Shown: piece by piece, positions 271 through 21,766 of the stretch
Layout of the letters: each line of letters begins with the position of its first letter
Numbering within the stretch: the first letter of the stretch is position 1
IMG/VR virus record: IMGVR_UViG_3300020430_000089
Span: 1 to 24,486 of that record
Strand: one strand, 5' to 3'
Length of the DNA stretch: 24,486 nt
Origin: a virus
Program-made: the position numbers and the translations under genes
Notes under the pieces: model-generated
Database searches by the model: none
Told to the model about the DNA's origin: nothing
What the model saw: the letters and a program-made list of their open reading frames with translations, nothing else

Positions 271-3200
271 TTAAGTTAATGGCTTTCTTCTGGAAACTAC
301 AGAAGCTGTAGATAATCCAGTATTACCATTCAAGTTATTGACGAAAAATTCTTCGGGATTTCCTGATCCACGATTCTGATATCCAAAGATTTGACCCCAA
401 CTGTATTTACCCCAGAAGGTATCTGTATTTGCTGTTACAGCAAGACCAACTTGAATTACATTGTTACCATATGACACAGGGCCAGGCAAGAAGGCACATG
501 TTACAGTGGCAAGTCCAGAGACTGCATCGCCAGGAGTAATTGTCTCTACTCTGAATACACCTCCTAGATAGTCACCCTCAGTAACTACTCCAACAGTTAC
601 ATTTGAACCACTAGAAGTTGTAATGCCAGTAAGTGCGTGACCTACGACTAGAGGACTATCATAGATTGTAAAGAAATCACCTTTTTGTAATCCAGTGAAA
701 TTGACCCCAAGCTGGTTGAGTGAGGAATATCCATATCCTAAGTTAGTGTTATCATTGAATTGAGATTTCAATGTGAACGCCAATCTAGGTAATACATTTG
801 CGCTGCCTGGCAACCATGTATTTATTCCTACAATATCACCAAAGTCTCCCTTCGCATTTATTGAGAAGATGTCCTCTTTTCTAGTCTTATCAGTTTGAAC
901 AAGAACTGGAGGTGAACTACCAACATCATAACCAAATCCACCATCTGTGACAGTTACAGAAGTTATTACACCAGAAGTTACTGATGCAGTTGCAGTCGCT
1001 CTGTTGATAACTGGGTCAGCATAGAATTGAGTTGTTCCACTACCTATAGCAAGGATTCTTGTACTATTAGAATTACCGTATGGTGTATTAGCGATATCAC
1101 GAATTTCATTCGGATGTGGTATTTCTCTTCTATTCCAGTTTGCCAAATCAAATGAGTAGTAAACTTCTCCTACTGTACTAATACCGATATAGAAGTTGTT
1201 GAAGAATTTAATCTTAGCGAAGTCAAATGTTGCAGGGTGTTGTGTACCAGCTGGTAATTGTTCACTGTATGGTTGCCAGAAGTTCTTATTTGTAGAAAGA
1301 CCAATTGTTCCGTTGTTACCAACAAAGATAAACTTACTACCATCAAAGATAACATCATTGATATCTTGAACTGTGTTACTTACCTTGTTTGACCAAATTA
1401 AACCATCATTAGAAGCAATGACTTTACCACCATTACCAACTGCAATAAATTCTGCCTGTCCATATGCAATGGAGTTCAGTGTTTCTAAAGTTCCAGAGAA
1501 TTGACTAAATGCCTCTGCTGTTGTCATACCAACCGCAGTAAAGATAGATCCACCAGCACCAACTGCAACCCATGTGTCTCTTGATCTCTCCCAAATAACA
1601 TCTTGGAAGTCACCAATATATGTACTGTCAAATGTATTAGTTACGTTTATTGCAGGGATTGTTCTCTTTTCTTTCAAATCAATAGGAGTCCAAGCGGACA
1701 AACTATTACCAATCGAAACTGCTCTTGCCATTGCAGCACCATCTCCAACAGCCATGACATATTTGGCATTGGTATTACCAGATGAGAATCCCATTCCCAC
1801 ACCATTAAATTGGACTGTATTACCGAATCCAATCTGTCCTCTTTCCCAGAATGTACCACTCTTGGTATTGATGTAGTAACTACTTGAACCAACAGCCACA
1901 TATGGTTCTGACTGTGTGATTGCTTTGAAATCTACAGATTGAACAATACCACTGATACCATCAAACTTCCAATCTTTAATTGGATCTTTACGATTGATTT
2001 TAGAGTTAGATATTGAAATTTCTGGATTTGTAAGTGAGTATCCTGTACCACCAAAACTTATAGTTAGAGATGATATACTTGAGGATGTAGAAACGATAGA
2101 GGTTACAACGCCTGGTATAATTTCGTTATCATCAAATATTTGAATAGAGTTTTCTGCTTGTACAAGTTTATCAATAGCATTGAACAATGGATATACATTG
2201 TTGACGTAAATTTTATCATCAGTCTTACCAACGTTCCTAATTAATCTAGTTGTGGGTAGAACCTTACTCTTCAAACTAGGTCTTGCTTTAGATATTAGAA
2301 CACCAGAAAGAATCTGATCACTTCTTTGTTTTTCCCATGAAAGCGGTCTATCAGCGTCTTGTGAAGTATCGATTCCAATACTGTTATATGTAAATGTTTC
2401 TAGAAGATCAGAAGCAACAATTCTCTTACTGGTTCTTTCAAATTGATCAATGTCAGTAATGTCTAATTTATTTTCTTTAATTTGTACAGTGTCGCCAGGT
2501 TTCAATGACTGAACTGGTTCAACAGTCTCAACATCTCTCTTAGATCCTCTAAAGTAAAATACAGAACACTTAGAATCTGGTTTTGGTGCTTCAGTAAAGA
2601 TAACTCTACTTCCTTTGAATGTGTAAGAAGACTGTGGAGTCTGTAGGATATCATTGATGTAGATAAAGATATTATTTGTAATATCCATGTCACTACCAGG
2701 CAATGTCTTAAGACTTAAAATTTCTGTTACACCGCTAGTTGTTACTGACAGAGTAAACTTCTTACGAGTTCCGTTAAAGAATGGTGCAATATCGTCAAAC
2801 AAGATGAATTGGCCAGGATAGAATCCTGAGAAACTATCGTTTTCTAGTTCTTCAACTGTTAATTGGAATTCTGTTAATACACCGACTCTTGGATCAGTTG
2901 CGATACCAGCAACTGTTAGATTATCACCAACCTTAAACGCTGTTCCCTCTTCAAGAATATTGAACTCTGAAATGTTACCATCAACGTTGATACGGAAATC
3001 AATCTTAGAATTTGTTCCGATACCTGAATTACCTGAAGCATAGATTAAATCTTCATTGAAATAGTTGTCTGGTTCAGTAACTTCAACAGTCACTGGTTTA
3101 GTTACTTCACCACCTCTCTTGTACAATGCTTTTTGTGTTGTTAATCCAGCATTAACTCTAAAGGTTGCAGCATCTAGTTTTTCAATCACATCAAATCCAG

Positions 3201-6200
3201 AGAATCCTTGTTCTATAGAAGATGCAATTCTCTTACCCTGTTGTGAAAGACCAGCCCTAGCATAGTTGTGATCCACTGTTGAAATACCAACATTAACAAC
3301 GTATGTTTTATTGTCGATAATCTTATCTACAAATGTACCACCAGCAGCAAAGTCAGTTCCACTAGGAGAGTTGTTATTCAGTCTAGGTGCAAGTATGACA
3401 CCTTGAATTGTACCACCACCATTGTAGAAACTAGGTGTAGTAGATGGCCCTACCTGTGTTTCAATAGTATTGTTATCAATGACTCTAGTAATCAGAGAAC
3501 CATTGTAGAAAGGATCTCCTCCTTTTGGATAGAATTGTTTTGTAGTATAGTTATCCTGTGAGCATGAGAATAAAATTCCCTCAGTTCTTAATTTTACATT
3601 TCTAGCAGATCCAGCAGCAGTTGTAATACCATGAACAACTGGTAAGTATGCAGTCATGATACCTATGGATTCATGATAGTCTGCATGATTAATATTATAT
3701 GCAACTCTAGTAGAAACACCAACATTCAAAGTGACGTTGTTAGATGTTACGGCAGTTGGATATAATGCGGTGTCGTGTGCTGGGTCTGTGGGTCTAGGAT
3801 ATGGATGTTCTGTCGCATATTGATCCATAGAACAAGAGTAAATCAATCCGCCAGTCATCAATCCTACTGATGTTGTAGTTGACAATCCGTGTGATGAGTC
3901 AGTGGTTATAGTTGCCAGTCCACTGTTTGCATCATAGGTAGCGTTCGTTACGTTGAACTTAACTCTGGATGTAATACCAACGTTGATTGTAAACGTGTCT
4001 ATTGTAGAGGTGACAATACCAACCTCTGTGTTGTGTATAGGATCAGTTGATCTTGGATATGTGTGGTCTGTTGCGTAGTTATCCTGAGAACATCTCCATG
4101 TGTATGAATCAGTAGCAAGACCAATAGTATCTCTGGCAATCAACATACCACCAAGTTTTGCGTTTTCAAACGTATGGAGATAATTACCACCACTGATGAC
4201 CGCATTATTAACGGCAGAGACTAGGATGTGTTCAGTTTGATTAGATGATGTTCCTACGTCCAGAGTAATGGTGGTATCTGTAGTAGCAGTAATCTTAACA
4301 GCAGTATTGTAAGCAGGATCTGGGCCATTAAGACCAGATTTCCTTGGGTAGAAGTGATTTGTCGCATGATTATCTAAGGCACAGGTAAATTTGAATCCAT
4401 TTGTTTTTAATTTGACAGAAGTTCCTTTCTGGAGTGTATGAGATCCGATATCAATCGTCATTAATCCAGTGAAAGGATCATATGATCCACTTGTAGGAGT
4501 ATGGTAAACAAGAGGAGATGTTCCTACGTTTACGCTAAACTTATCGAGATCAACAGTTGTAACTGACAACCATTGTTGATCTGCTGGATCTTTTCTTCTT
4601 GGATAACTCTTGATGGACTTTCTACCATCCATCTTACATCTGAATCTTATGGAATCTCTTTCAAACTGAACTCTATTACCAGTAACCATTCCATGACCAG
4701 CAGATGTCACAGTCATAATACCAGATACAGCATCATAAGTTGCAAATTCTACGTTTCTAACATACGATCCATTGAATCCATGAACATTAGAGAACACAGT
4801 CATAATACCTGTGCTTGCAGTATATGATGCAGTTGCAATGTTGTAATTAACTATTGTTGATACACCAACATTGATTGTTATAGTGTCAGCGGATGTAGAA
4901 CCAATACCAACAGATACATTACCACCTATGGGATCATCAGGACGAGGATATGCATGTTCTGTTGCGTAATTATCTCTGGCACATGTGAATATTATGGATG
5001 CAGTATTGATACCAATAGTGTCTCTTGCTTTCTTAAGACCGCCTGTTGTCGCACTCTGGAACCAGTGTGCATTTACAATAGTAGATACACCAACATTTAC
5101 GGAAAATGTATTTACTCCAACGTTGTATATTGGCAACCATTGATTTAAAAATGGATCAGAATATCTTGGGTATGCCTTAGTTGCAGTGTATCCATCTAGA
5201 TCGCATTTGAATGAAATTGATTCTAAATCAAACTTGACATATTCACCAGCAACAAAACCATGATTTGCAATGGTTGGTTCTAGTACACCAGTACTAGCAT
5301 TATACGTTGCCGTCGAAATTGTATGAGCCGACTCATTAATGTATGAATGTCCAGCACCAACATTCATTATAAAGTCACCTGTTGCAGGGTTATATGTTGA
5401 TGTTGATATTGAACGTTCTTCGATTGTAGAAACACCAACTCTTACTTCAAAGGTGTTTGTTGTTACAGATACGATTCCTATATTCGTATCATAAACTGGG
5501 TCTGTCTTACGAGGATATGCATGAATGGTTGCATAGTTATCTTTAGCACACTTGAATGATAACGAACCCTCTGCTATCTTTATTCTTTGTGATGGTCTTT
5601 CGACATTATTTGCACTAGATGAAACATAAACGTAAGGTGTATAATCTCCACCACCAGTTATGACCGCATCAGTACCAATACCGACTAATGAGTATGGATA
5701 ATCACCACCAGCAATAACACCCTCAACAGCTATACCTTGATTAGGTACAAATTGGTAAAGATTAGAAGAAGTTGTAGGGCCTACATTTACTGTGAATAAC
5801 GTACCAGCAGCACCAACAATTTCTACTGGTTTATCATAGTATGGGTCACTTGGTCTTGGATAAAAATGATTAGTTTGGAAACCATCTTGTTCACACTTGA
5901 ATACTACAGATCCAGGCTTAAATTTGATCGATTCACCAGCTTGGAATCCATGCAATCTGTCAAGAGAAACAGTCATGATACCTGAGGCTGGAGTATATGA
6001 AGCAAATCTTATATTGTATTTGACGATAGTTGAGATACCAGCATTGACTGTGATAGTAGTTCCAGCTACACCTATAATCGGAACGGCAGTATTGTAGGTT
6101 GGATCTTTCGCTCTTGGATAATATTTTGTTGAACTATTTCCATCAGCAGTACATGAAAATCCTAATGAACCATCTCTAAATTTAATACTCTGTCCCACTG

Positions 6201-9200
6201 TCAAATCATGAGTTCCAATACTCATTGTCATCACACCTACAGAAGGCGTATAATCTGCGCCAGAAACAGTATAATCTAATCTAGTAGTAATACCAGCAAA
6301 GACTTCAAATGTATTAGTAGAAACGTTACTGATAGGTAGCCAAGAATCACTTATAGGATCGGTTGATCTTGGATAGTATTTGGTTGTTGTAAATGCGTCT
6401 AATGAACACTTCCAACCTATAGATTCATCTGCTATTCTAACTTCATCACCATTTGAGAATCCATGACTAGGCATGGTCAAAGTCATAATACCCACAATGG
6501 GGTTATAATTTGCGGTTGTTATTGAGTGTTGTGTAGGGCCTGTAAGACCATGATTAGCAACAGTCAACACCAAAGATCCAGTGCCAGGATTGTAGTCAGC
6601 GTCAGTAGGTGTTGTTGTTCCACCACCAACTATGTCTATACAGTTAGGTATAGTTTCAGAAGCTACAAATTGATGATCATAATCACCACCAACCTTGATG
6701 GTTTTTTCATCAGAACTTACATAAGTATGTGCATAATCACCACCAGCAAATGTTGATGTTGCAGTTGCACCGTGGAACTCATGTAGATATGGCCCTCCAG
6801 TGAGTAATGCACCCTCTTCTGCACGGAGGAATAAGTGAGGATAATCTCCACCGTATATCAATGCGCCAGGAAGAGCCTCTTCAAATCTATGAATATACTG
6901 ATTTTTTACACGAGATATACCGACATCTACTTCTAGTGCAGTTCCAGAATAACCTACAATTGGAATAGAAGTATCGTATGCAGTTGATCTACTTCTTGGA
7001 TAATAATGTTGATAAGCACCATTATCTAAAGCACATGTAAATGCAAGACCAGTTAGAATAACATCTTTACCTACTTTGTAGCCGTGAGGCGCTGCAGTGG
7101 TTACAGTTAGAACTCCAGTTACATTATCATATAATGCACTTCCAACGCCTAGGGCAGGGTCATAGTCGCAAGTAAATGCAATACCAGAAAGAACAACACA
7201 ATCATCTTCTGTAAGATTATGGTTCTTTCTTGTGGTGATAGTTGCAATACCAGATGATTCATCATATTCAACATGACCAACTTGCACAGCTGGGGCACTT
7301 GTAAATGTAACAGCAATACCAGTGGTTTGAACATAGTCATCGTTCTCTAATCCATGACCTTTGTATGGAATAAATGAACCAATACCAGATCCAACATTAG
7401 CAGTATGAATACCAGTGGTAGTCATTGCAATACCAATATTGATCTCAAAGTTTAGTGTGCTATTGATACCAGTAACACCAAAATATCTCTGAGTATCAGA
7501 TGGGAAGATTATATCACCAACACCTGTACTAAATGCAATACCAGATAACTTAACAACACTTGAAGTTGTTAATCCATGAGCAGATGCAGCAGTAATAGTT
7601 GCAACACCAGAAAGAGAATCATATTCTAGTGCGTTTATATTTTTTGAATCACCATCTTTATCACCAACAGCGGTAATTGTAGTGATACCAGTTGGAGGAT
7701 TTTGATTAACATGTTCAATGTGTTTTGGAGCATAGAATCCAGTTCCACCCTCTACGATACTGAAGTTTGTAATGATACCAGCTTCTGCTCTGTTTACAAC
7801 ACCACCACCAACATATTGATGTGCAAAAGATGATATTCCAACAAAAGCTTTAAATGTATTTGCAGTCGCACCTATTATATCAAAACCTGTGACGTTTTTA
7901 CCGTCCATGATTGCAGTATCAATACCAGCCTGAACTGTACCACCAGTAATGTATACTAATGGTTGTGTACCCACACCAGCCATAATAGTTACTGTTTGTG
8001 AGTTAAGGATACTTACAATTGGATACCCATCTTCTCTGAATGTAAATGTAGAGATACCTTCTGTAACTAAAACTCCTTTTACAAGTAAGTTTTTACTCTG
8101 ATTACCAGATGTGCCAATATAGTGTCCAGTGGGAACATATACAGTTGCAATACCAGTAATATAATCATAACCAAATGTGTCAATATCTCTTGCTGCAGAT
8201 ACTGGTGAGAATGTAAATCCAGCACCTGTAATTCTTACTCTATCATCAGATTCAAATCCGTGAGGACTACCAGTTGTAAATGTAGCAACACCAGCAATAT
8301 GATTATAAGTTACAGTGCTAATTGCAACACTAGTGGTTGATGACTCGCCCAAAAATGCAGTAATGCTTGCACCAAAACCTTGAGATGATTTTACAGTAAT
8401 TTCTGGTACTTTTCTGTAACCTTGACCTTTACCTTCTATTTGAATAAATTCAAGACTACCTGTAGAACCAACACCAACTCTTACGGCTGCTTTTTGTGGA
8501 ATATAATATCCAGCACCAGTTTGTAATCCTACTTTACTAATTCTTCCCGCTCTCGGAACTCCACTTAAAAAGTTAAGTTTATTCTCTGCATTATCTAATA
8601 TTTCAAAGTCTAATCCTGGCGTTTGGACAACATTATTGATCAATATAAAAGGATTGTTGTTTATATCAACACCTGTGTTTACATTGTTGTAGAGTGATGT
8701 AACAATGCCTGTATTTTCAGATAATGAAAATTGTGTTCCAGCAATACCAGTAAATTCTAGCGAAATATCATCTAGTATTACGTTTTTATCTTTAGGATCA
8801 AATGAATCTAACTGTCTAGAAAATAATCTACCAGAAAATGAAGAATTAGTTTGTAATCCTGTAGGGCCTGATTTACCATAAGGTGCATCAGAGAAGAATA
8901 TATTATCATCTACAATGTTGTAATCACCAGCAAATACTGAGTATGCAATACCAGCAGAAGCATGACTTGTGGCTATTGACCCAAATGCACCTCTTTCTAC
9001 AACAACACCTGACTGTTCTGTCTGACTGAATATAGGAAAATATCCAACACCAGTTTTAAATATAACAACTTCTGATACTGTTCCAACACCAGATATTTTA
9101 GGGTAAAAAACTCCTTCTACACTAGGGGTTGCAGTACCCTCTATTGTAATCTTAGGTGGATCGGTTTGTGCGTAGCCTGCTCCTCCATCTAAAACCTCAA

Positions 9201-9273
9201 TATTAACTACTCCATAAACAGAGTTAAAAGTTGGTCTTAGTAGAACTCCTTGTCCAGGCGTAGTTCTTGGCAT
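271..9273 (-). CDS. giant repeat-built virion protein, 3000 aa, with seven-blade propeller-like C-terminal region
   Basis: This very large protein has no signal peptide or membrane segment and is rich in G, T, V, I and S. The order of parts is as follows. (1) N-terminal modules of the type G-x-G-Y followed by a hydrophobic strand, with an ILINNVVQTP element near residue 205. (2) Units of the form Y-x-x-x-S-G-x-x-T-x-T ending in HG at about 330-750. (3) Twelve units carrying C-x2-D and YP(R/K) at about 750-1925. (4) An 18-residue GGDYxHxF tandem repeat at about 808-880. (5) A second INDILQTP module near 2210. (6) Seven AVG-type blades at about 2454-2750. (7) A tail ending GKYSWGQIFGYQNR and RRKPL. 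Such proteins occur in tail or baseplate regions of marine T4-like phages. It follows the 340-aa gene by 13 bases, with GAGG upstream overlapping that gene's stop. A role as fibre-like or peripheral baseplate protein is inference; the exact function is unknown. Confidence 0.75.
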   Translation of the reverse strand: MPRTTPGQGVLLRPTFNSVYGVVNIEVLDGGAGYAQTDPPKITIEGTATPSVEGVFYPKISGVGTVSEVVIFKTGVGYFPIFSQTEQSGVVVERGAFGSIATSHASAGIAYSVFAGDYNIVDDNIFFSDAPYGKSGPTGLQTNSSFSGRLFSRQLDSFDPKDKNVILDDISLEFTGIAGTQFSLSENTGIVTSLYNNVNTGVDINNNPFILINNVVQTPGLDFEILDNAENKLNFLSGVPRAGRISKVGLQTGAGYYIPQKAAVRVGVGSTGSLEFIQIEGKGQGYRKVPEITVKSSQGFGASITAFLGESSTTSVAISTVTYNHIAGVATFTTGSPHGFESDDRVRITGAGFTFSPVSAARDIDTFGYDYITGIATVYVPTGHYIGTSGNQSKNLLVKGVLVTEGISTFTFREDGYPIVSILNSQTVTIMAGVGTQPLVYITGGTVQAGIDTAIMDGKNVTGFDIIGATANTFKAFVGISSFAHQYVGGGVVNRAEAGIITNFSIVEGGTGFYAPKHIEHVNQNPPTGITTITAVGDKDGDSKNINALEYDSLSGVATITAASAHGLTTSSVVKLSGIAFSTGVGDIIFPSDTQRYFGVTGINSTLNFEINIGIAMTTTGIHTANVGSGIGSFIPYKGHGLENDDYVQTTGIAVTFTSAPAVQVGHVEYDESSGIATITTRKNHNLTEDDCVVLSGIAFTCDYDPALGVGSALYDNVTGVLTVTTAAPHGYKVGKDVILTGLAFTCALDNGAYQHYYPRSRSTAYDTSIPIVGYSGTALEVDVGISRVKNQYIHRFEEALPGALIYGGDYPHLFLRAEEGALLTGGPYLHEFHGATATSTFAGGDYAHTYVSSDEKTIKVGGDYDHQFVASETIPNCIDIVGGGTTTPTDADYNPGTGSLVLTVANHGLTGPTQHSITTANYNPIVGIMTLTMPSHGFSNGDEVRIADESIGWKCSLDAFTTTKYYPRSTDPISDSWLPISNVSTNTFEVFAGITTRLDYTVSGADYTPSVGVMTMSIGTHDLTVGQSIKFRDGSLGFSCTADGNSSTKYYPRAKDPTYNTAVPIIGVAGTTITVNAGISTIVKYNIRFASYTPASGIMTVSLDRLHGFQAGESIKFKPGSVVFKCEQDGFQTNHFYPRPSDPYYDKPVEIVGAAGTLFTVNVGPTTSSNLYQFVPNQGIAVEGVIAGGDYPYSLVGIGTDAVITGGGDYTPYVYVSSSANNVERPSQRIKIAEGSLSFKCAKDNYATIHAYPRKTDPVYDTNIGIVSVTTNTFEVRVGVSTIEERSISTSTYNPATGDFIMNVGAGHSYINESAHTISTATYNASTGVLEPTIANHGFVAGEYVKFDLESISFKCDLDGYTATKAYPRYSDPFLNQWLPIYNVGVNTFSVNVGVSTIVNAHWFQSATTGGLKKARDTIGINTASIIFTCARDNYATEHAYPRPDDPIGGNVSVGIGSTSADTITINVGVSTIVNYNIATASYTASTGIMTVFSNVHGFNGSYVRNVEFATYDAVSGIMTVTSAGHGMVTGNRVQFERDSIRFRCKMDGRKSIKSYPRRKDPADQQWLSVTTVDLDKFSVNVGTSPLVYHTPTSGSYDPFTGLMTIDIGSHTLQKGTSVKLKTNGFKFTCALDNHATNHFYPRKSGLNGPDPAYNTAVKITATTDTTITLDVGTSSNQTEHILVSAVNNAVISGGNYLHTFENAKLGGMLIARDTIGLATDSYTWRCSQDNYATDHTYPRSTDPIHNTEVGIVTSTIDTFTINVGITSRVKFNVTNATYDANSGLATITTDSSHGLSTTTSVGLMTGGLIYSCSMDQYATEHPYPRPTDPAHDTALYPTAVTSNNVTLNVGVSTRVAYNINHADYHESIGIMTAYLPVVHGITTAAGSARNVKLRTEGILFSCSQDNYTTKQFYPKGGDPFYNGSLITRVIDNNTIETQVGPSTTPSFYNGGGTIQGVILAPRLNNNSPSGTDFAAGGTFVDKIIDNKTYVVNVGISTVDHNYARAGLSQQGKRIASSIEQGFSGFDVIEKLDAATFRVNAGLTTQKALYKRGGEVTKPVTVEVTEPDNYFNEDLIYASGNSGIGTNSKIDFRINVDGNISEFNILEEGTAFKVGDNLTVAGIATDPRVGVLTEFQLTVEELENDSFSGFYPGQFILFDDIAPFFNGTRKKFTLSVTTSGVTEILSLKTLPGSDMDITNNIFIYINDILQTPQSSYTFKGSRVIFTEAPKPDSKCSVFYFRGSKRDVETVEPVQSLKPGDTVQIKENKLDITDIDQFERTSKRIVASDLLETFTYNSIGIDTSQDADRPLSWEKQRSDQILSGVLISKARPSLKSKVLPTTRLIRNVGKTDDKIYVNNVYPLFNAIDKLVQAENSIQIFDDNEIIPGVVTSIVSTSSSISSLTISFGGTGYSLTNPEISISNSKINRKDPIKDWKFDGISGIVQSVDFKAITQSEPYVAVGSSSYYINTKSGTFWERGQIGFGNTVQFNGVGMGFSSGNTNAKYVMAVGDGAAMARAVSIGNSLSAWTPIDLKEKRTIPAINVTNTFDSTYIGDFQDVIWERSRDTWVAVGAGGSIFTAVGMTTAEAFSQFSGTLETLNSIAYGQAEFIAVGNGGKVIASNDGLIWSNKVSNTVQDINDVIFDGSKFIFVGNNGTIGLSTNKNFWQPYSEQLPAGTQHPATFDFAKIKFFNNFYIGISTVGEVYYSFDLANWNRREIPHPNEIRDIANTPYGNSNSTRILAIGSGTTQFYADPVINRATATASVTSGVITSVTVTDGGFGYDVGSSPPVLVQTDKTRKEDIFSINAKGDFGDIVGINTWLPGSANVLPRLAFTLKSQFNDNTNLGYGYSSLNQLGVNFTGLQKGDFFTIYDSPLVVGHALTGITTSSGSNVTVGVVTEGDYLGGVFRVETITPGDAVSGLATVTCAFLPGPVSYGNNVIQVGLAVTANTDTFWGKYSWGQIFGYQNRGSGNPEEFFVNNLNGNTGLSTASVVSRRKPLT
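1020..1915 (-). repeat. seven propeller-like blades in the 3000-aa protein
   Basis: About residues 2454-2750 hold seven copies of a blade motif: a hydrophobic pair, (A/F)VG, a glycine turn, a strand, S-x-D or similar, and often W. The cores are YVAVGSS, VMAVGDG, WVAVGAGG, FIAVGNGG, FIFVGNNG, YIGISTVG and ILAIGSG, about 30-60 residues apart. The pattern resembles BNR/sialidase or Ycf48-type propeller repeats. Seven copies would close one ring. The fold is inferred from the repeats alone. Confidence 0.6.
3522..7040 (-). repeat. twelve Cys-Asp/Tyr-Pro-Arg repeats in the 3000-aa protein
   Basis: About residues 745-1925 contain twelve diverged units. Each has F-x-C-x2-D, then about seven residues, then YPR (YPK in the last), usually followed by DP, a hydrophobic strand and a V-G-x-S-T element. 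Spacing is mostly about 75-115 residues, with one longer gap between units 1 and 2 that contains the 18-residue repeat. Approximate residue positions of the YPR motifs are 751, 962, 1047, 1133, 1248, 1363, 1437, 1552, 1637, 1733, 1820 and 1909. The protein repeat is clear, while the DNA copies are well diverged, which suggests old duplications. Confidence 0.85.
6637..6852 (-). repeat. 18-residue tandem repeat GGDYxHxF in the 3000-aa protein
   Basis: From residue 808 four units follow one another: GGDYPHLF, GGPYLHEF, GGDYAHTY and GGDYDHQF. They are spaced exactly 18 residues (54 bases) apart. A degenerate unit (YIHRFEE) lies just upstream. Isolated relatives (GGDYPYS, GGDYTPYV, GGNYLHTF) appear later among the Cys/YPR units. 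The regular spacing and the alternating Gly-Gly turn and aromatic-His strand fit a stacked beta-hairpin or beta-solenoid; that structure is inference. Confidence 0.75.
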
Positions 9274-9286
9274 TTACTCTGTTTCC

Positions 9287-10309
9287 TCAACTAATGTTAA
9301 TAGAACTTGAACAATAAACTTTGGTGACACCAGTAGCATCTCTTATAATACTAAAAGTCAAGATATCGTCATTTGCTGTTGATGGTGGTGGATTTCCTCC
9401 AACCCATTTTACTCCTGTCGCAATAGTCGAACCGTTAACTGTAACTGGATCACCATAAGTATATCCAACTCCAGCATTGATAATAAGTGTCGCTGTCGTT
9501 GCTTTACTATTTTGACCACTTACATTTGTAAATGCCCATGAGGTAATTGTTGTTGTTGCAACGCCAACCACCACAGATCCTTGTGAAACATCTATAGTGA
9601 ACGTACCGCCTGCACTGACTTGCATCACATCACTAAAATTACCTACAACTTTTTCTGTAATATCAGAGTTGAAGTTTACTTGATCCATCAAGGTACTTGC
9701 ACCACTGACCAGAACATCACCTTTTACATCTAATCTACATGTAGGAGCGGTAGAACCTATACCAGTATATGCCTCATTAGTGACCACGAATGACTTATTA
9801 TCTGATATATTTTGATCGGATACTCGCAATCCATGTCCATTCCCTTTTGCAACTGCCCAAATAGTTGGTTTTTCGTTTGAGAATGATGCAACTTCTAGCT
9901 GAGATGTAGGTAAAGATGTTCCAATACCGACCATACCGTCAGCCTTAATTCGGAACATTGTTGTTGCAGTTCCAACCTCAATAGGGCCTTCTGCAATCGC
10001 ACCAGGCTGTTGTATTGTAACCTTACCTAGATCACCATAGGATGTTGTTACAACACCACTTGTATTGATATTAATATCATCCGCAACACTCTTTGCAATA
10101 CCAGCAGCAATCGAAGTTGATGCAATACCAGCATTTGTTGAATAACCAGCTGTAGTGGCAAAGGAAACAAAACTTACAAGATTAGTACCATCTCCAAAAG
10201 TATCATATATCTCGTTAAAATTATTATTAATCTTTATAGTTCCTGCCAACAGGGTATCACCTGTGCCGTCATTCGGAGCAGAACCAGTACTAATCCCTTG
10301 TTTAGACAT
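9287..10309 (-). CDS. fibre-like virion protein, 340 aa
   Basis: The N-terminus carries NDGTGDTLLAGTIKINNNF, a segment I recognise from many marine T4-like tail and fibre proteins, where it probably anchors the protein to the virion. The middle holds two copies of the VGIGTSLPTSQLEV type (the second is GIGSTAPTCRLDVKGD), which are common in phage fibre shafts. The C-terminal ~110 residues run from a VMQVSAGGTFTIDV stretch through WAFTNV and GVKWVGGNPPP to DDILTFSIIRDATG, a terminal domain typical of cyanophage fibre proteins. The start is the ATG ending at 10309, 22 bases after a perfect TATAAATA late promoter, with no Shine-Dalgarno. It stands between a gp7-like gene and the 3000-aa gene. 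It may play the part of a short fibre or adaptor, but neither the target nor equivalence to T4 gp9-gp12 can be shown. Confidence 0.78.
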   Translation of the reverse strand: MSKQGISTGSAPNDGTGDTLLAGTIKINNNFNEIYDTFGDGTNLVSFVSFATTAGYSTNAGIASTSIAAGIAKSVADDININTSGVVTTSYGDLGKVTIQQPGAIAEGPIEVGTATTMFRIKADGMVGIGTSLPTSQLEVASFSNEKPTIWAVAKGNGHGLRVSDQNISDNKSFVVTNEAYTGIGSTAPTCRLDVKGDVLVSGASTLMDQVNFNSDITEKVVGNFSDVMQVSAGGTFTIDVSQGSVVVGVATTTITSWAFTNVSGQNSKATTATLIINAGVGYTYGDPVTVNGSTIATGVKWVGGNPPPSTANDDILTFSIIRDATGVTKVYCSSSINIS

Positions 10310-10340: not shown

Positions 10341-13300
10341 TTAATATGGAGGGTTATCATCCATAGTAGCAGTTGTTGTGTCTACATTCAACACATTTGA
10401 GTTAACTCTCTTTGTATCGTAGTAGAAATTATCATCAACAACTTTGTTTGCAATAGCTTGTTTTGCTTGTGCAAACGTTGATTCTCCTATCTGTTTTACC
10501 TTAAGGAATTCATCGTCAATCTTAAGGACATCACCCTTCGATAGTGAACCGATACCAGTACCAACTGTAATGTTTTCACCAGAACCACCAATAGCGTTTG
10601 AAACTTCCACACTTAGTAGTTTATTTGTAAGAGGTGTCTGTATGATATTATCAATTAGAATCAATGCTTGTTTGTTTGGATCTTGAACTTTGAGGAGATG
10701 TGTACCAGTTCCTAGACCAGTAAACTCAAATGGTAATGATGTTGACAAACCAGAAACTCTAAAGTTTACATCATCAACCTTTTGAACAAATAATTCATTA
10801 GGCATGATATTTGTTCCACACTCTACAGGAGTCAATTCTATATTGTTAGTAGGAGTTGTGCCGCCAATATATGTTCCAGCAATTGTTATGACATTAGTTG
10901 AGGCGTAACCAGTTCCACCAGTAACAACACCAACAGCAGAGATGTCTAAATTACTATCTCTAGTAATATTAAAGATCGCACCAGAACCAGATCCATTGTT
11001 TGTGGATGGCACATTAGAGTATGTTGTTTGTATACCAACTCTGGAACCTGTTGTCTTAGTGACAGGGAATAACAAATCATTAGCTGGTGATGCACCGCCA
11101 AGGAATGTACCAGCAATTCCTACAGTGTCACCTACAATGTAACCTTCACCACCACTGATTAAAACAACAGCAGTAGATATACATTGACCAGTTCCTTGAT
11201 CAAAGTCAAACTTAACTTGGAATCTAGCACCAGATCCAGTTGTAGTGAAGCCAGGCAAACCACCGTCAACACTACCAAATCCATAGATTCGGAATACAGG
11301 GCCAGGTGGGTTTTCTGTGACAGCAGTTCCTGTTACAGGGCCTGGAATTTGAACATTATATCCATTTTCAAACAGAGAACTACCACCCACTCCAGAAGTT
11401 ACCGCAGCCATTACAATATCTTTAGTTCCTGTTGTATATGATGTAATCGCAATACCGATCTTAGATCCACCTTGAGTGTCAAGGTTTACCACTTGGCCAG
11501 TTTGGAAATCATGATTCTGAATACTGATAATATTCAATGGGAGGTTGACATCAGTGCTTGACGCTGCATTGTATGATTTTTTAAACGCTGTATTACCACC
11601 AGTTGTTAGTTGGAACTGTCTACTTCCAACTAGTGTACCAGTTCTATCATGTTCTCCTGTAAATCCACTTGAGATGTCATCTAAGTTCAAGACTTTATTA
11701 GTCTTGTTCATAATGAAACTCTTAATTGGTCTACCCTCTGGGAAGAATATTCTTTGTACAGAACCATCATCTAAAGCGTCATCTTCCGTAACCATAGCGA
11801 AATTATCTCTCTTACCCATGTAAATTTCATTATCAATATTCAAGATAAGATCAACTGTAGTATCAACTGCCTTAACCTTCATAGTAGGAGGATAAGGATA
11901 TATGATACTATGACGAGTGGATGTGTGTGCAGCACCAACCATTCTTACCTGTGATCCATCAGGTCTTGTATGAACGTGGAATGGGCCATCGTATAACTTA
12001 CCGTCCACATAACCAAGTATGCTTGATGGTAAGTTTGATGCATCAATATTATCTTTAGGATCACTCTCTATGACAAGATCAGAGAACTCTAAGAATCCAG
12101 ATGGATGAACAATTGACTTAACTGATTCTTTCCATGTGTTATATGGTAAATTACTCTTGATTGAATATGAGAACTTCTGGAAATAGAAGTTGTCGGATAG
12201 TCTCTGGCTGAAATCGTTAAGTATACCAACGTTTAAGTCATTCTTGGAAACTTTGTCTCTTGTAACTCCAAGAGTAGTTGGTACGCTGAATCTGTTAACA
12301 TCTCTTACGTTTCCTTTCAGTTCAGATACTTGACCAGTTAATACGTCGCCAGGTAAGAGTGTACCAATAGTATCTCTCAATCTAAGTTGACTGATATTTA
12401 CATTCCAACCATTTTCTGCTACAAATCCTTCAAACTTAGTGGATGTGACTTTCTCACCAGATAGGTACTTAGCATCATCAATAATAGTCATATTGAATTT
12501 TGCCATATCGTTGAAGTTTACAATAGATCCTAATGTAAAGTCATCATCGTAAGTTCCAAGTGTAACTGTGGATATTCCAGGCGCATCCGCCATGCTAAAT
12601 TGTACAGTCGCATTTGTAGTGTTTACACCTGTGACTGTGTAGAATGAGAAGTCATAATCAGCAGAGTTAAAGTTAGCTTCACCTGATTGTAGTGAGGCTG
12701 GTTTAATTCTACAACCTTCAACAAATACCTTGTCTCCAATAGTAAATGGCAACTCAGTTTCTGTAGATGCATAACCAGTTGTGACTGGGACATTAAATTG
12801 TTGATCTAATAACAATTCGGCAGTAACTGTAGTACCACTATGAGTAATATTGTCTATGTCATAACCATTAGAGTTATTAGTTGTAATGATGCTTAAAGGT
12901 TCTTTAAATTCAAACGCATTTTGTATGACTTCTACTCTATCAACAGATCCACCAGATACATGTGCTACAATTGACACATTACTGTTACCCCTGACTGCAA
13001 GAGTAGGTGGTTGATTATATCTACGTCCTCCATCAAGAACTTGTATCTCATTTATTCTGGCAATACCACTAATATCAACAATAGCGGGAACTGCTAAGAA
13101 TGGTAGTAAAGTTGGGTCAGTTGGATAATCAAATCCATCTTTAATTCTTTCAATAATATCAATCTGTCCGATTTCGGGAGAAGATACTTTTACAATACCG
13201 TCTTGACCTTGTGTGCTTGCAAAACCAATAACTTTCGGTAAAACTGTGTATCCCTTGCCTGGGAAATTGATTTTCGTCTTAAATATGGGGCCTCTAGCAT

Positions 13301-16300
13301 TTACTGACGTTGTGCTGTAGGTAATGGTGCTTACACCGACTCTAGAAACAAATTTTTGTGATTCTAGTGGTTTTTCTTTTAAATTAAACGTAAATGTCTT
13401 ATCATCCTTGATTAGAACGCTATGTTCGTTTCTAAGAATGATATCTCTAAATGTTATGTTATTTCTACCAGTAACTTCAACGTCAGATGATCCAAATGTC
13501 TTTCTTGTATCTGATGGAACAACAGGAGTCAAATCGTAGTAAGTTTTACTTGGCCAAGGAAGCTCAGTATTAAGAGTTACAGTTGCATTTGCATTACCAG
13601 AGATGCCATCTCTAACAATGTTGAATCCACCAGTATTTGTACCTTGAACATCAAGTCTATTGTTGAAAGTGATGTCTTCAAAGAAGTCCAATCTCATATC
13701 AGTCAAGCTTGGATCAGAAACGTCAAATGTTATGGTATTACCTGTAGTAAAATTCAAAGGTGGGTTAATCTTAGCAATAAAGCTTAAATTGCTAGGACTT
13801 GCAGTTGTAACTGTTGATATTGAAACTGGATTAGAGTCAAATACATCTGATTTGTATTTGCAGAGTTTTATGAAGTCTGGATCTTCCCTAAGAACAAAAT
13901 ATGTTTCATTATTGATCAATCCATTGATAGTATTTCCATTATCGTAGTAAACAACCTTATCACCGCTCTGTAAATCTTGATCACCAATGTTTATTTGAGT
14001 TAAATCATCAGAAAAACTTGTATATGTGAATCCAACTCGTTTTGTAGTAGTTTTAGCAATTACTGGATCATATCTAAGTATTGTTGATTCGGTAGATTTG
14101 GGTAAAGCGTCAATTTTGATTATATCACCAGCAGATAGTTGGTGAGCAGAAGAACAACCAACTTCACCGAAGAATCTTTCAACTTTAGTTGTTACTTTTG
14201 GATATGCAGTTGATAAAGAATGTGCAAACCCAGAATTAGAAGCAACATTGTAGAACCATATCGCATCAGCAGCTGTAGAGAACGCTACGGTAGTTAATCC
14301 AATATGATCTTTATCAAAGTTGACTGCATAGACATCTCCTTCAAGAAGAACCTCAGTTCCAACTCCAGAAGTTGCACCAGCAGCTACTTTTGCCCAAACA
14401 AGAGATGTACCAGCGATGCCTGCATTGTAAACAAGTTTTTGACCTGTAAAGAACTTATGATCTCTAAGATATATTCTTTGTTGAGCTACAAAACGATTCT
14501 CTACAGTCTGAATTGCTGCCGTTCCAAAACCAGTAGATGTAATAGTGTAGTGGGTTCCTGTTGATCCAACACCAACTGATTCTTGTGGATTAAAGTATGT
14601 TAGATAATTATCAAATGTAAATTGTGTGATTGTTGATGTTCCTACAGGGAATAAGAACTTATTTGGTTTCAATATAACATTGTTAGTGCCTGCAGCATGA
14701 GTCATTGCAGCACCAACATAATTTTCCCTGTTTACAAACAATCTAGAGAAGTTAGTGTCAATACCAGTGACCACCATAACCTCTGTTCCAATTCCAATGT
14801 GATCACTTGGTTCAAAACCTCTAGTATCAGTAACAAAGATGTGTGTGCTAACTCCAGTAACGGTCACAGTATCTACAAATGTAGAAAGACCAACTTTTCT
14901 ATTAATAATTTGAACTTTTTGTGAGCCATTAAACTCTGTAAACTGAGATGTGTCGATACCACTTAGTATGACTGTTTCACCATCAGCAATATCATGTGGA
15001 ACTGTGGTAACACCAATAATATTTCTCTTTTCAAGTCTAAGTGCTGTGTCAGTAAATGTGCTGACACCTATTTCAACAGAACTTACCTGTTTACCTAAAA
15101 TTTCACTTACAACTATGTTAGCACCAGAACCATTAGTTCCACTGTTGTCTAATGTAAGTGGATCGTCAATTTTGTAACCATCTCCTCTTGAAAAAATAGT
15201 AACAGATGATATTCCAGAACTCTTTGTTTTAATAACTTCAAATTCTTGTTTCAATACATCTTTTACATCATCAATTAGTTCATAATCAGAGTTACCGTAT
15301 GATAGGTAGTAAGGAGATATATTTCTTGTTAGATCTCTGCTTGCTAAATCAATATCTTGGTTGAAGAAAGTGACAAAGTTCTCTTCGATTGGAGTATCTT
15401 TAAATTGTCCACCAACCATGTATGGGAACTTGGGTTTAGCAACACCACTAGAATCAACTTCTACTGAATAGAAGTACGCATATGTTCCATCTGGATACTG
15501 TGGAGTTACACAATACCTACCACCGTGTATGTCTAGGTCGCCAGAGTTGTCAAAGAGATAATCATTGACAAAGTATCCAAAGGCAAAGCCAGGAGGTCTT
15601 AGACCCGCTTTAACACTTGTATCAAGAATATAACCACTACTCAATCTTCTGATAGCACCACCAACAGCGTTCTGATATCCATATGGGCCATAAATTGGAT
15701 TACCGTCATATGCATAACCCAAAATAGGTGAGTGGAAAGCATTAGGTGTTTCTAGATTACCAGAGTCAATGTTATCTCCTAATTGATATCTCAATTTTTG
15801 TGGAGGATACATTCCAATGGTCTGGAGTTGAAATTCTGGGTTTGTGCTTGGTTTTGTTAGTATAGAATCTTCAACGTTGATGATGTTATCATTTTTCTGA
15901 ACTTGGTTAATCTTCCATTCACGAACGTTACCAATAAACTTAGCGCTTCTACCTCTATTCTGCAATATCATGGTAGTGTCACTAACACCATAACCAATAC
16001 CACCATCTAGTATCTGTACACCAGTAATTTTACTATCTGTTATTACAGGGCGAACATCTCCAAAGCTTCCTGTAGGAGAAGAGATGACAATATCAGAGTC
16101 TTCACGGTATCCATCACCATTTGCAAGTATCTGAACACCAATAATAGATCCGCCAATAATAATTGGTTTTAGAAGAGCAAAAGATGTAACTGTAGCAATA
16201 CCAACATCAGGTCTTCTATGGAAATCCATAATATTAGTACAACCGTAACCAATACCACCTTGTTCCAGATAAACATTGTCTATTGAACCAAGAACAATCG

Positions 16301-19300
16301 GATCTATCTCTGGTTTTATCACAGTGGTAGCAGCAAGACCTGATAATGACTCAATCTTTACTGATATGGGTGGATACTTTATAGTATGTTTACCACTACC
16401 CAATCCACGAATTACAACGGTTTTATTTTTGTCATAATTCGTAAAGTTTCTTTGTGAGGAAACACCAACATCACAAAGCTTGAATTTATTAGGGTCTATG
16501 ACTCGGACAGCGTACTGTGTTGAAGTAGAAAGACCATTAGCAACAGTTCCGTCAGTAGAGTATTCAACAATCTCTCCGTTGTTGAAGTGATGATCGTATG
16601 CTAGTATATAATCGTCAGATGTGCTGATACCAGATTGTACATCACCATTAACAGGTCTTGCTGGAACAATTACCTTTCTATTTGAATATCCAGATCCACT
16701 TTCTTTTACATAAATCTTGGTTATTGTGTTTTTCGATTTGACTGTGGTAAATCTATGGAAACCAAAACTAATGTTTCCAATATTAACTGTGTTAATACCA
16801 ACTTTAGCGTCTTCTGGAGTGTTGTATAACTTTATCTGTTTCTCGTTTACAGGGCCAACGTAGTAAGTAGATCCACTAACAACGTTTACAATCGGTGTGT
16901 TACCCCTTGCATCATAGATGATGCCTTCACCAGTTTCAAAATTATGTCTCTCTTCAAATGTAATACTCTCGTCAGTCGTATTTACAGATGAACCATCTGC
17001 CTTAAAGTTAGCAACGATTCTACCTCTAACAAGATTAGATTCAAGAACAGCACCAGTTCCATTACCACCTTCTACAGTAATTTTTGGTTTTTCTTGATAT
17101 CCAATGCCAGGTGATACAAGTTTTACCTCTTTGAAAGATCCGACAACGTTAGCATGACCTAAGGCATCAAATCCTTGTTGATCTTTAATGATGAGTGGAG
17201 GGCCTGTGATTACATCATAACCTGAGCCTGGATTTGTAACAGTAATGCTAGTAATATCACCATGAAAGATCTGTTCATCGAAAACAGTAGGAGGGAATAG
17301 TTCAACACCATTCGCCATCAATCCTACAGGTCTGTTGTTAACATCTCTCTTATTAGGATCGTCAAATAATTCTCTTTCTTTGTAGAAAGGATATTTTCTG
17401 AGTATCTTCTGGTTTTTAAGTGTTTTGTTTTCCCATCCAGATTTGTAGATATACTGGCCAGGAGTTGATGTTCTAACAGCGATATATTTTTTAGCAAATA
17501 CGTCAGAACCACTAAATGACAGATAGAAGTCAGTTTGGTTGATCGCAGTTACAAAGTAGATACCAGTATTGATTCCACTGTTGGTTGTATTGTCCCAATA
17601 AATTCTATCACCAGTTACATAATTATGTGGCAGTAAACTAGACCCTGCTGCAGGGTCGAAGGCGGGGTCATATGACTGAATGGTATAAGTAAACCCACCA
17701 CCAAGTAAAGGCGTGCCAAATCCATCTACAACCTCTATTCCACTGGTCTTTACCCAGACCTTATTATCAGTTGCAAAGATTGGATAGTTTGGTAGACCAG
17801 AAGAAGCAACATAATAGAATTTTTCCTCTTTATCAAGGTAACTATTTTGAATACCAACAGGGAAGTTGTCAACACCAGCAAAATAATTATTGTTATGTGA
17901 CGCTTTTGTAACTGTCTTAGTAATTACTGTTGGATTAGATGGAATAGTACCACTAATTTGTACAACAATCGTATTTGAATAAACTTGTGCTACGTTTGTA
18001 GAATCATATTCAATTAATTTGATTGTAATATCTGTTTCTTCGCCAAAGTCATTCTTGATCTTTAATACTTCATCAACATAAAAAACACAAGAGTCAAATA
18101 TTGAAATTCTAAAAGTATTAACGTTTACTTGGTTAATATCTGAGATTGTATGACTAGACGGTACATTGTAAATCCAATTATTGAATTGAGGATTGTCAGA
18201 TAAGTCTCTACCGAAAGAAAGCAACTTTAGACTATCGCCAATTTGCATATTTGTTGATGTAGAGGTATCTACTTCATCAATAACGTTTACAAGTCTAAAT
18301 TGCAGTAAAGATGTTTGTCCAAATCCAGCATAAGCATATGCAAGCTTGTTTTCGAGAATATCTGCACCGAAAACTAGCGATGTTGAAATACCAGTAACAC
18401 CTAAAAACTGGTTTACAGTTTTATCAGTGTATCTTAGGTTCAAGAAGTTAGCGCCTTCTCTTGGTTTGACTAATAGAGTACCACTTTGTCCAAATCCCAC
18501 TGTAGAATCAACTACAAGTGTCTCAGAGTCCTCTGGAGTGATCTCTAACGCCTTTGTTTTACCAGGCACGGTGAAACTACCATCAAATGATGTAGAGTCA
18601 AGAGAGATCTCATAGAAATCAGTTTGATTGATTGGTCTATACTCTACATTGTAGATTGAAGCACTTACAGTTCCAATACCAGCTACATCTTGATACAAGA
18701 AGTTACCGATTGTCTGTAATGGTTGTCCACCAAACAGATTTTCTACAAGAACATGTTTAGTTTTGAAATATACGTTTGCTGAAGGAACTAGAGTTTTCTC
18801 AATTGGTTTGATTAACTCAATTTCCTCACCATATAGTAATTTGAAAAGAATCTGATACGAAGCATCAGTTCCTTTCGACATATAGAAGTCTTTTGCCCTT
18901 GTAAGGATATTAGTTACTGATGTGCCAGGCTGAAAAGTTCTATTTTCAAAGCCAGGCAAAAACTCAGTCTTGAACTTTGTAAAAAACGACTGTAAGAAGA
19001 GATTACTTAGGTTTATTACAGTTGAACCAGCTATATGAACCGCAGCATTGGTTTCGGCAAAGTTTGCAAACTCAGCAGCGTCTTCTTTTGATATTTGATC
19101 AATACCACTAAATCCTCTAGCGCAGCCAAGGAACTCAGTATCAGTTTTAGATGTATATGTTATAACTTCATTATCAATCTTCAACAAACCATAGGTATCA
19201 GGCCAACCAGTAGTAGATGTGACCGTTAGTATCCTATCACCAGCATAACAGGCGTTGGTAAGTTCAGTTGAAACAGTAAGAGTTTCGTTATTGAACGCAC

Positions 19301-21350: not shown

Positions 21351-21766
21351 TATATCCTAGTTGATTGAAGAATAAATTCTATATTTTGTCTGGGAATAGC
21401 TAATCCCACGATATCATAGTTAATAGTTACCGTTAATTCATTAGTATCGAGCGGATACACCACTCTAACATCAACACGTTTGACTCTAGGTTCAAAGTTT
21501 TCAAGTAAAAGTCTAATATCATCTTCTAAAACTTGAGCATTATCAGGATCTGCCTGTTCAAAGAGAGATTCTTCGACAGCACTACCTAATAAGTTGTTAT
21601 AAAAACGTTCACCGATTCTTGTTCTTACTAAATTTGTCACAGCTCGTTTGATCGCATCCTCATTTTCAAACACACCGATGTCATCCGTCACAGGATGGCG
21701 GGTAAATGTAAGACTTATATCCTTGAAAGGCGTACTTTGGAGGTTGCGTTCGTCAACTTTTGCCAT
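21350..21766 (-). CDS. 25: baseplate wedge protein gp25 (lysozyme-like wedge family), 138 aa
   Basis: Length and layout fit T4 gp25 (132 aa) and the phage/T6SS TssE family. There is a variable N-terminus with FKDISLTFTRHPVTDD, an amphipathic DAIKRAVTNLVRTRIGERFYN segment (about 38-57), GSAVEESLFE, then the diagnostic NFEPRVKRVDVRV at about 90-101. The EPR triplet contacts gp6 and the sheath base in known structures, and the NELTVTINYDIVG strand closes the fold. In T4, gp25 joins gp6 and gp53 in the inner baseplate and primes sheath assembly. The start codon overlaps the stop of the 45-aa ORF by one base, and its own stop overlaps the gp6 start by one base, making a tight three-gene cassette. 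Confidence 0.93.
   Translation of the reverse strand: MAKVDERNLQSTPFKDISLTFTRHPVTDDIGVFENEDAIKRAVTNLVRTRIGERFYNNLLGSAVEESLFEQADPDNAQVLEDDIRLLLENFEPRVKRVDVRVVYPLDTNELTVTINYDIVGLAIPRQNIEFILQSTRI

What the first reader, a model, noticed from the sequence alone, without database searches (positions are those of the whole stretch)
3522..7040. Twelve Cys/Asp/Tyr-Pro-Arg repeats in one virion protein
Each unit keeps one Cys (C-x2-D) and a YPR motif about a dozen residues after the Cys, often with a His two residues before YPR. A Cys kept in all twelve units of an extracellular protein is unusual. It could mean metal binding, thiol cross-links between neighbouring units, or packing of a repeat stalk. 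I know of similar units in marine phage proteins but of no assigned function.
Basis: partly seen in the sequence, partly recalled or inferred. Interest (0 to 1): 0.62.

Follow-up and report, generated by a model that had tools for sequence, protein, structure and literature searches.

The report
Cysteine-cored barrel repeats in cyanophage baseplate
The twelve repeats are real: they are small barrel-shaped building blocks found only in viruses of marine cyanobacteria, strung along a large baseplate-arm protein, and the cysteine kept in nearly every copy is most likely part of each barrel's packed core rather than a metal site or a cross-link.

Summary
Window 271-9273 (-) encodes a 3000-aa protein with exactly twelve C-x2-D-x7-Y-P-[R/K] motifs, all with identical spacing (eleven YPR, one YPK; His at Y-2 in 7, Lys in 4, Gln in 1). 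None is expected by chance. The protein is 78% identical (over 252 aa) to S-SSM7 'gp7' and is the detached C-terminal half of the giant cyanophage baseplate protein gp7, split by a gp9/10-like connector gene.

Each motif lies in a ~75-residue seven-strand beta-barrel (AlphaFold2 pLDDT 93.5), most like the E1-FCCH barrel, though that match is weak. Across 1302 unique units Cys is 99.7% conserved. It stays when Asp, His/Lys, Tyr or Arg are lost, when a protein has only one unit, and in tail-fibre proteins. It sits in the inward-facing register (C-11, C-9, C-4, C-2, C0 all hydrophobic). A buried core Cys fits best. A Cys/Asp/His metal site and neighbour-to-neighbour disulfides are disfavoured. 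An inter-chain disulfide is not excluded, because I could not read coordinates.

Units were found only in marine cyanomyovirus isolates, related marine virus contigs and marine MAG/SAG contigs (0-21 hits per genome). The array is probably a modular peripheral arm. Solid, moderately interesting, not a new kind of system.

The parts
271..9273 (-). 3000-aa virion protein carrying the repeat array; C-terminal half of the giant cyanophage gp7
   Evidence: ORF; 77.8% identity over 252 aa to S-SSM7 'gp7 baseplate wedge subunit' YP_004324156; PHROG 2885 baseplate wedge subunit, E 5e-149; collinear with S-SCSM2R gp7 3458-5176 and P-SSM2 gp7
6910..7158 (-). unit 1, Cys747 (CALDNGAYQHYYPR)
   Evidence: unit HMM 94 bits
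6283..6531 (-). unit 2, Cys956 (CSLDAFTTTKYYPR)
   Evidence: 116 bits
6028..6276 (-). unit 3, Cys1041 (CTADGNSSTKYYPR)
   Evidence: 114 bits
5770..6018 (-). unit 4, Cys1127 (CEQDGFQTNHFYPR); modelled alone
   Evidence: AlphaFold2 pLDDT 93.5, pTM 0.81
5425..5673 (-). unit 5, Cys1242 (CAKDNYATIHAYPR)
   Evidence: 98 bits
5080..5328 (-). unit 6, Cys1357 (CDLDGYTATKAYPR)
   Evidence: 115 bits
4858..5106 (-). unit 7, Cys1431 (CARDNYATEHAYPR); N-terminal strands divergent
   Evidence: 79 bits, hits profile from position 27
4513..4761 (-). unit 8, Cys1546 (CKMDGRKSIKSYPR)
4258..4506 (-). unit 9, Cys1631 (CALDNHATNHFYPR)
3967..4215 (-). unit 10, Cys1728 (CSQDNYATDHTYPR)
3709..3957 (-). unit 11, Cys1814 (CSMDQYATEHPYPR)
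3439..3687 (-). unit 12, Cys1904 (CSQDNYTTKQFYPK), the only YPK
7150..7308 (-). truncated Cys-bearing half unit (aa 656-708, CDYD at 702) without YPR, joined directly to unit 1
   Evidence: sequence; E1_FCCH partial hit at aa 673-698; half-unit HMM hit at aa 661-705
7354..7656 (-). Cys-less FCCH-like module, aa 540-640 (FPSDTQ in place of YPR..DP)
   Evidence: partial unit HMM hit at aa 544-582; sequence
9287..10309 (-). gp9/10-N baseplate tail-fibre connector gene, lying between the two gp7 halves
   Evidence: PF07880, E 1e-9; PHROG 677
10341..19475 (-). N-terminal half of giant gp7 (3044 aa), with YHYH domain
   Evidence: T4 gp7 match E 1.4e-4; PHROG 2885 (E 0) and PHROG 964; PF14240
19476..21350 (-). 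gp6 baseplate wedge
   Evidence: PF21379; PHROG 219, E 1e-198
21350..21766 (-). gp25 baseplate wedge
   Evidence: PF04965; PHROG 261

Best explanation
The twelve units are tandem copies of one ~75-residue seven-strand beta-barrel domain, an FCCH-like module with a cyanophage-specific loop C-x2-D-x5-[H/K]-x-Y-P-R-x2-D-P. They lie in the split-off C-terminal half of the giant gp7 baseplate-wedge protein of a Lipsvirus-like marine cyanomyovirus. Shown: the repeat, its conservation, its genomic place, the domain model and the unit-number variation. Inferred: (1) the Cys is a buried, reduced core residue where strand 4 ends, packed with the hydrophobic core and capped by the C-x2-D helical turn, while D+3, H/K+9, Y+11, R+13 and D+16 form one coupled polar network that locks the loop. 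(2) The array is a modular arm or stalk on the baseplate periphery, whose length changes by gain or loss of whole units. (3) Its role is reach, spacing or tail-fibre support on picocyanobacterial hosts, rather than catalysis.
For: Domain: single-unit model pLDDT 93.5, pTM 0.81; three-unit model pLDDT 87.9, with Cys at the end of strand 4 and a 3-residue helix just after it in all three units. Fold: Pfam E1_FCCH above its cut-off in the protein and weakly in 9 of 114 units; Foldseek Uba1 FCCH half-domain 2v31, prob 0.82, and Uba6 7sol, prob 0.75. Core Cys: positions C-11, C-9, C-4, C-2 and C0 are at least 99% large hydrophobic and the alternate positions mostly polar. Conservation: 1298 of 1302 unique units and 177 of 179 units at 55% redundancy; still about 97% with a search profile blind to the Cys or to the whole motif. 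Cys kept in 117 of 120 units lacking H/K+9 and 72 of 73 lacking D+3. The polar residues are lost together, e.g. Y11/R13 p = 1e-15 (not corrected for shared ancestry). Both TGT and TGC are used at the Cys in nine of the twelve units, so identity is not just recent copying. Orthologous units are mostly 61-79% identical, paralogous ones mostly 30-49%; the L047 orthologue has six extra whole units. gp7 context. T4-GC969, carried by unit-bearing Syn19_088, was detected in purified S-SM1 virions (PMC3037559).
Against: Burial is read from sequence pattern and secondary structure, not measured. No PDB fold match reaches E 1e-3, so 'FCCH-like' is a weak homology claim. Relative placement of neighbouring units is uncertain (pTM 0.51). 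Arm geometry is not observed.
Confidence: 0.62

Rival explanations
1. Thiol cross-links: the conserved Cys forms disulfides between chains or between arms after lysis into oxic seawater, stiffening or latching the array.
For: One Cys per unit at a fixed place, 99.7% kept. Phage Milano has a baseplate and sheath disulfide network that locks contraction (PMC10811340). T4 gp10 Cys555 has been proposed to bond gp7 (PMC3004832).
Against: Phages with a single unit keep the Cys (S-RIM2, S-RS29, ACG-2014b), and odd counts are common, so neighbour pairing along one chain is not needed. Cys lies in the inward register. No conserved second Cys: 25 of 179 units have one. T4 gp7 is a monomer (PMC3004832). 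Assembly takes place in a reducing cytoplasm (general knowledge).
Confidence: 0.1
2. Metal site: Cys, Asp and His (or Cys, Asp and Lys) bind a metal ion that organises the loop.
For: Cys, Asp and His recur with fixed spacing; His at C+9 in 60% of unique units.
Against: Lys replaces His in 25-31% of units; Cys kept in 117 of 120 units lacking both and in 72 of 73 lacking Asp; the core register places the Cys inward.
Confidence: 0.06
3. Ligand-binding module: the conserved D-[H/K]-Y-P-R-D loop is a glycan or envelope-binding surface and the array is a multivalent adhesin; Cys only supports the loop.
For: Units occur in baseplate-arm proteins and in annotated tail-fibre proteins of the same phages (S-SSM7 SSSM7_113, P-SSM2 PSSM2_301). 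Units found only in marine cyanophages. Weak Pfam hits to the endosialidase beta-barrel in 8 of 114 units. Conserved polar residues are co-lost as a set.
Against: The motif is nearly the same across phages of different hosts and across units only 30-49% identical, more typical of structure than of receptor choice. No carbohydrate-binding family hit was convincing (best E about 0.004).
Confidence: 0.2

Closest known systems
Giant gp7 'baseplate wedge' proteins of T4-like cyanophages (PHROG 2885; S-SSM7 SSSM7_103, P-SSM2 PSSM2_111, S-SCSM2R)
   Same: Same gene neighbourhood gp25-gp6-gp7-gp8; collinear alignment; same units
   Different: In the window and S-SSM7 the gene is split in two by a gp9/10-N connector gene; unit counts differ (12 here, 8 in P-SSM2 gp7, 18 in the L047 orthologue)
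E1_FCCH domain (PF16190), as in Uba1/Uba6 and many phage structural proteins
   Same: Consensus Y-x-x-x-x-G-x-x-T-x-T-...-H-G-L-x-x-G-x-x-V; weak sequence and fold matches
   Different: The unit's own best single-family E-value is about 1e-3; the Cys/YPR loop comes from the cyanophage alignments; no link to ubiquitin chemistry
Endosialidase beta-barrel domain (PF12195) and phage tailspike barrels (4hiz, 4y9v)
   Same: Small phage tail-associated beta-barrel; weak Pfam matches (E 0.004) and weak Foldseek matches
   Different: No significant homology; the endosialidase barrel belongs to a trimeric enzyme, from general knowledge
PHROG 1276 / 701 / 5342 / 18802
   Same: 107-113 of 114 units match these profiles, labelled unknown function, virion structural protein or tail fibre
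   Different: These profiles record the sequence family only; no fold, Cys or function is assigned

Membership tests
T4-like gp7 baseplate wedge protein | Lies between gp6 and gp8 in the gp25-gp6-gp7-gp8 cluster | tested here: met
   gp25 and gp6 upstream in the window; in S-SSM7 the same order continues to gp8
T4-like gp7 baseplate wedge protein | Sequence homology to T4 gp7 | tested here: inconclusive
   The 3044-aa N-terminal half matches T4 gp7 over 30 aa (E 1.4e-4; PHROG 964 E 1e-7). The 3000-aa repeat half has no T4 gp7 match but is collinear with the C-terminal part of one-piece cyanophage gp7
T4-like gp7 baseplate wedge protein | Present in the virion as a wedge subunit | not testable with these tools
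   Literature only: unit-bearing family T4-GC969 (Syn19_088) detected in S-SM1 virions (PMC3037559)
E1_FCCH domain (PF16190) | Pfam profile match above gathering score | tested here: inconclusive
   Whole protein 30.6 bits against cut-off 29.5, best stretch aa 673-698, a half module; 9 of 114 single units at E below 1, best 9e-4
E1_FCCH domain (PF16190) | Same barrel fold as solved FCCH domains | tested here: inconclusive
   Uba1 2v31 prob 0.82, E 0.22; Uba6 7sol prob 0.75, rmsd 4.3 over 88 columns; none below E 1e-3
Cys/His metal-binding repeat | Metal ligands invariant together in every unit | tested here: not met
   His 60%, Lys 31%, others 9%; Cys kept without them
Disulfide-linked tandem repeats (within one chain) | Paired Cys within a unit or obligate unit pairs | tested here: not met
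   One conserved Cys per unit; single-unit proteins keep it
Disulfide-linked virion network (between chains) | Surface Cys bonded to a partner chain | not testable with these tools
   No coordinates and no multimer prediction available

The most novel reading that the evidence does not exclude
Probability: 0.1. Interest if true: 0.72.

Novelty: new variant of a known kind. Interest (0 to 1): 0.4.

Why it matters
T4-like cyanophages are among the commonest ocean viruses, yet their host-contact apparatus is mostly unnamed 'structural protein'. This defines one recurrent building block (fold, motif, boundaries, range), shows it is shared by the gp7 arm and tail fibres, and gives a simple testable question: what a Cys that almost never changes does inside each barrel. 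It also corrects the gene map: in this lineage gp7 is two proteins with a connector gene between them.

Tried and rejected
Metal triad: rejected on the H/K swap and on Cys retention without its partners. Pairing of neighbouring units: rejected on single-unit proteins and odd counts. Search bias as the cause of the conserved Cys: rejected with Cys-blind and motif-blind profiles. Recent duplication as the cause: rejected, since units within the protein are mostly 28-49% identical and both Cys codons occur. Units in cellular genomes: the genome contigs motif scan gave mostly marine MAG/SAG contigs; the one isolate hit checked in detail, Nonlabens, is a P-TIM40-like cyanophage contig (98.7% over 8 kb), and one hit (L345) looks like chance. 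Units in pelagiphage HTVC008M: none in the whole record. Host type: Prochlorococcus phages carried more units than Synechococcus phages (5-21 against 1-18, p = 0.03, n = 6 and 8), but the sample was hand-picked and is confounded by ancestry, so no claim. Solved-structure search by sequence: nothing for this protein, no convincing hit for the unit profile. Literature searches found no paper on this repeat. The scan with alignment A1 failed because the alignment was too diverse.
Full report
What is there. The window is part of a marine T4-like cyanophage closely related to Synechococcus phage S-SSM7 (Lipsvirus, Kyanoviridae): gp6 is 85% identical and the repeat region 78% identical over 252 aa. 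On the minus strand the order is gp25, gp6, a 3044-aa protein, a 340-aa gp9/10-N connector, and the 3000-aa repeat protein. S-SSM7 shows the same order and continues to gp8.

The observation. C-x2-D-x7-Y-P-[R/K] occurs twelve times between aa 747 and 1917, always with Tyr at C+11. Shuffled versions of the protein never contain it. Small corrections: the last unit has YPK; the residue two before YPR is His in seven units, Lys in four and Gln in one; a truncated thirteenth Cys (CDYD, aa 702) lacks YPR. Spacing is 85-86 aa between plain neighbours, with 90-115 aa where other material is inserted, 74 aa where a unit is shortened, and a 209-aa gap after unit 1.

Which protein it is. The 3044-aa neighbour matches T4 gp7 weakly but significantly (E 1.4e-4; PHROG 964). 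In P-SSM2 and S-SCSM2R one ~5200-residue gp7 aligns with both window proteins in order: the 3044-aa protein ends at S-SCSM2R residue 3451 and the repeat protein starts at 3458. The connector has no counterpart inside those gp7 proteins. So the repeat protein is the C-terminal half of a giant gp7, and in this lineage the gene is split at the place where the connector gene lies. Which state is ancestral was not tested. In T4, gp7 is a monomer, six copies per baseplate, at the wedge periphery, and gp9 binds one of its domains (PMC3004832). A unit-bearing relative, T4-GC969 (Syn19_088), was found in purified S-SM1 virions by mass spectrometry (PMC3037559).

The unit. AlphaFold2 with 114 diverse units gives a confident seven-strand domain (pLDDT 93.5, pTM 0.81). 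A three-unit stretch gives the same elements in each unit, with uncertain relative placement (pLDDT 87.9, pTM 0.51). The Cys comes at the end of strand 4; C+1 to C+3 form a short helical turn; H/K+9 and Tyr+11 lie on strand 5. The nearest named fold is the FCCH barrel of ubiquitin-activating enzymes: Pfam E1_FCCH just above its cut-off in the protein, 9 of 114 units weakly, Uba1 and Uba6 among the best Foldseek matches. None of these is strong, so 'FCCH-like' is the claim, not 'FCCH'.

Conservation. From more than 300 loci (plus fifteen isolates) I collected 1302 unique units, 179 after redundancy reduction at 55% identity. In the unique set: Cys 99.7%, Asp+3 94%, His/Lys+9 60/31%, Tyr+11 94%, Pro+12 99.8%, Arg+13 90%, Asp+16 92%. 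With profiles in which the Cys column, or all motif columns, were blanked out, Cys stays near 97%. The Cys stays even when its company is lost: kept in 72 of 73 units without Asp+3, 117 of 120 without His/Lys+9, 70 of 70 without Tyr+11. Asp+3, His/Lys+9, Tyr+11, Arg+13 and Asp+16 tend to be lost together (not corrected for shared ancestry), which suggests one coupled loop network that the Cys underlies but does not depend on.

What the Cys does. Positions C-11, C-9, C-4, C-2 and C0 are large hydrophobic residues in at least 99% of units and the positions between them mostly polar. A residue in that register at the end of a core strand points inward. Proteins with one unit keep it; no second Cys is conserved; both Cys codons occur in most of the units among orthologues. 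The simplest reading is a buried, reduced Cys in the barrel core under the motif loop. What remains unexplained is why Val, Ala or Ser almost never replace it. A chemical role, above all an inter-chain bond of the kind seen in phage Milano (PMC10811340), therefore keeps about 10%.

The array. The 18-unit orthologue L047 matches window units 1-10 and then carries two extra units before unit 11 and four before unit 12. Orthologous units are 61-79% identical (54% for the last), paralogous ones mostly 30-49%, so the array is old and changes by whole units. The same unit also occurs in tail-fibre-like proteins of the same genomes: S-SSM7 SSSM7_113, P-SSM2 PSSM2_301, and the unannotated PSSM2_022 between two tail-fibre-like genes. 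This suits a modular structural element of the host-facing tail. An extended arm is inferred, not seen.

Range. Protein searches of 50,697 phage records found units in 372, named Synechococcus, Prochlorococcus, cyanophage or marine single-cell virus (327 with a one-unit query), although 2331 records from many hosts carry a gp6 relative. The pelagiphage HTVC008M, filed in the same family, has none. Hits among cellular genomes were mostly contigs of marine MAGs and SAGs, which I take to be phage contigs binned with them; only a few were checked.

Verdict. The metal and neighbour-crosslink readings are unlikely, the packing reading is favoured. The unit is a cyanophage-specific variant of a known barrel type in a split giant gp7.

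Noticed in passing
window 9287-10309 between 271-9273 and 10341-19475: Giant cyanophage gp7 is encoded as two proteins here and in S-SSM7, separated by a gp9/10-N connector gene; in P-SSM2 and S-SCSM2R it is one ~5200-aa protein. The two halves abut within 6 residues on the S-SCSM2R protein.
   Followed up: partly
window 10341-19475 (-), aa 1248-1339: YHYH domain (PF14240, E 9e-18) inside the N-terminal gp7 half; an unusual domain for a baseplate protein.
   Followed up: no
window 6634-6861 (-), protein aa 805-880: Four GGxYxHxF-type short repeats (GGDYPHLF, GGPYLHEF, GGDYAHTY, GGDYDHQF) form a second repeat class between units 1 and 2, with further copies between later units.
   Followed up: no
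L047 10001-20878: Orthologue with 18 units; six whole units present beyond the window's twelve, between units 10/11 and 11/12.
   Followed up: yes
L337 (NZ_RMVE01000006.1): An 8-kb stretch of a 188-kb contig in the Nonlabens xiamenensis 1Q3 assembly is 98.7% identical to cyanophage P-TIM40: apparent contamination of a public bacterial genome.
   Followed up: partly
L355 2469-3461; L356 3616-7596; L357 3785-8218: The same Cys/YPR unit occurs singly or in pairs in other proteins, two annotated as tail-fibre proteins, of P-SSM2 and S-SSM7, far from the gp7 locus.
   Followed up: partly
window 23501-24118 (-) and 22335-23093 (-): A 205-aa protein whose sequence looks 2OG-Fe(II)-oxygenase-like and a 252-aa protein that looks glycosyltransferase-like lie beside the baseplate genes; judged by eye only.
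   Followed up: no
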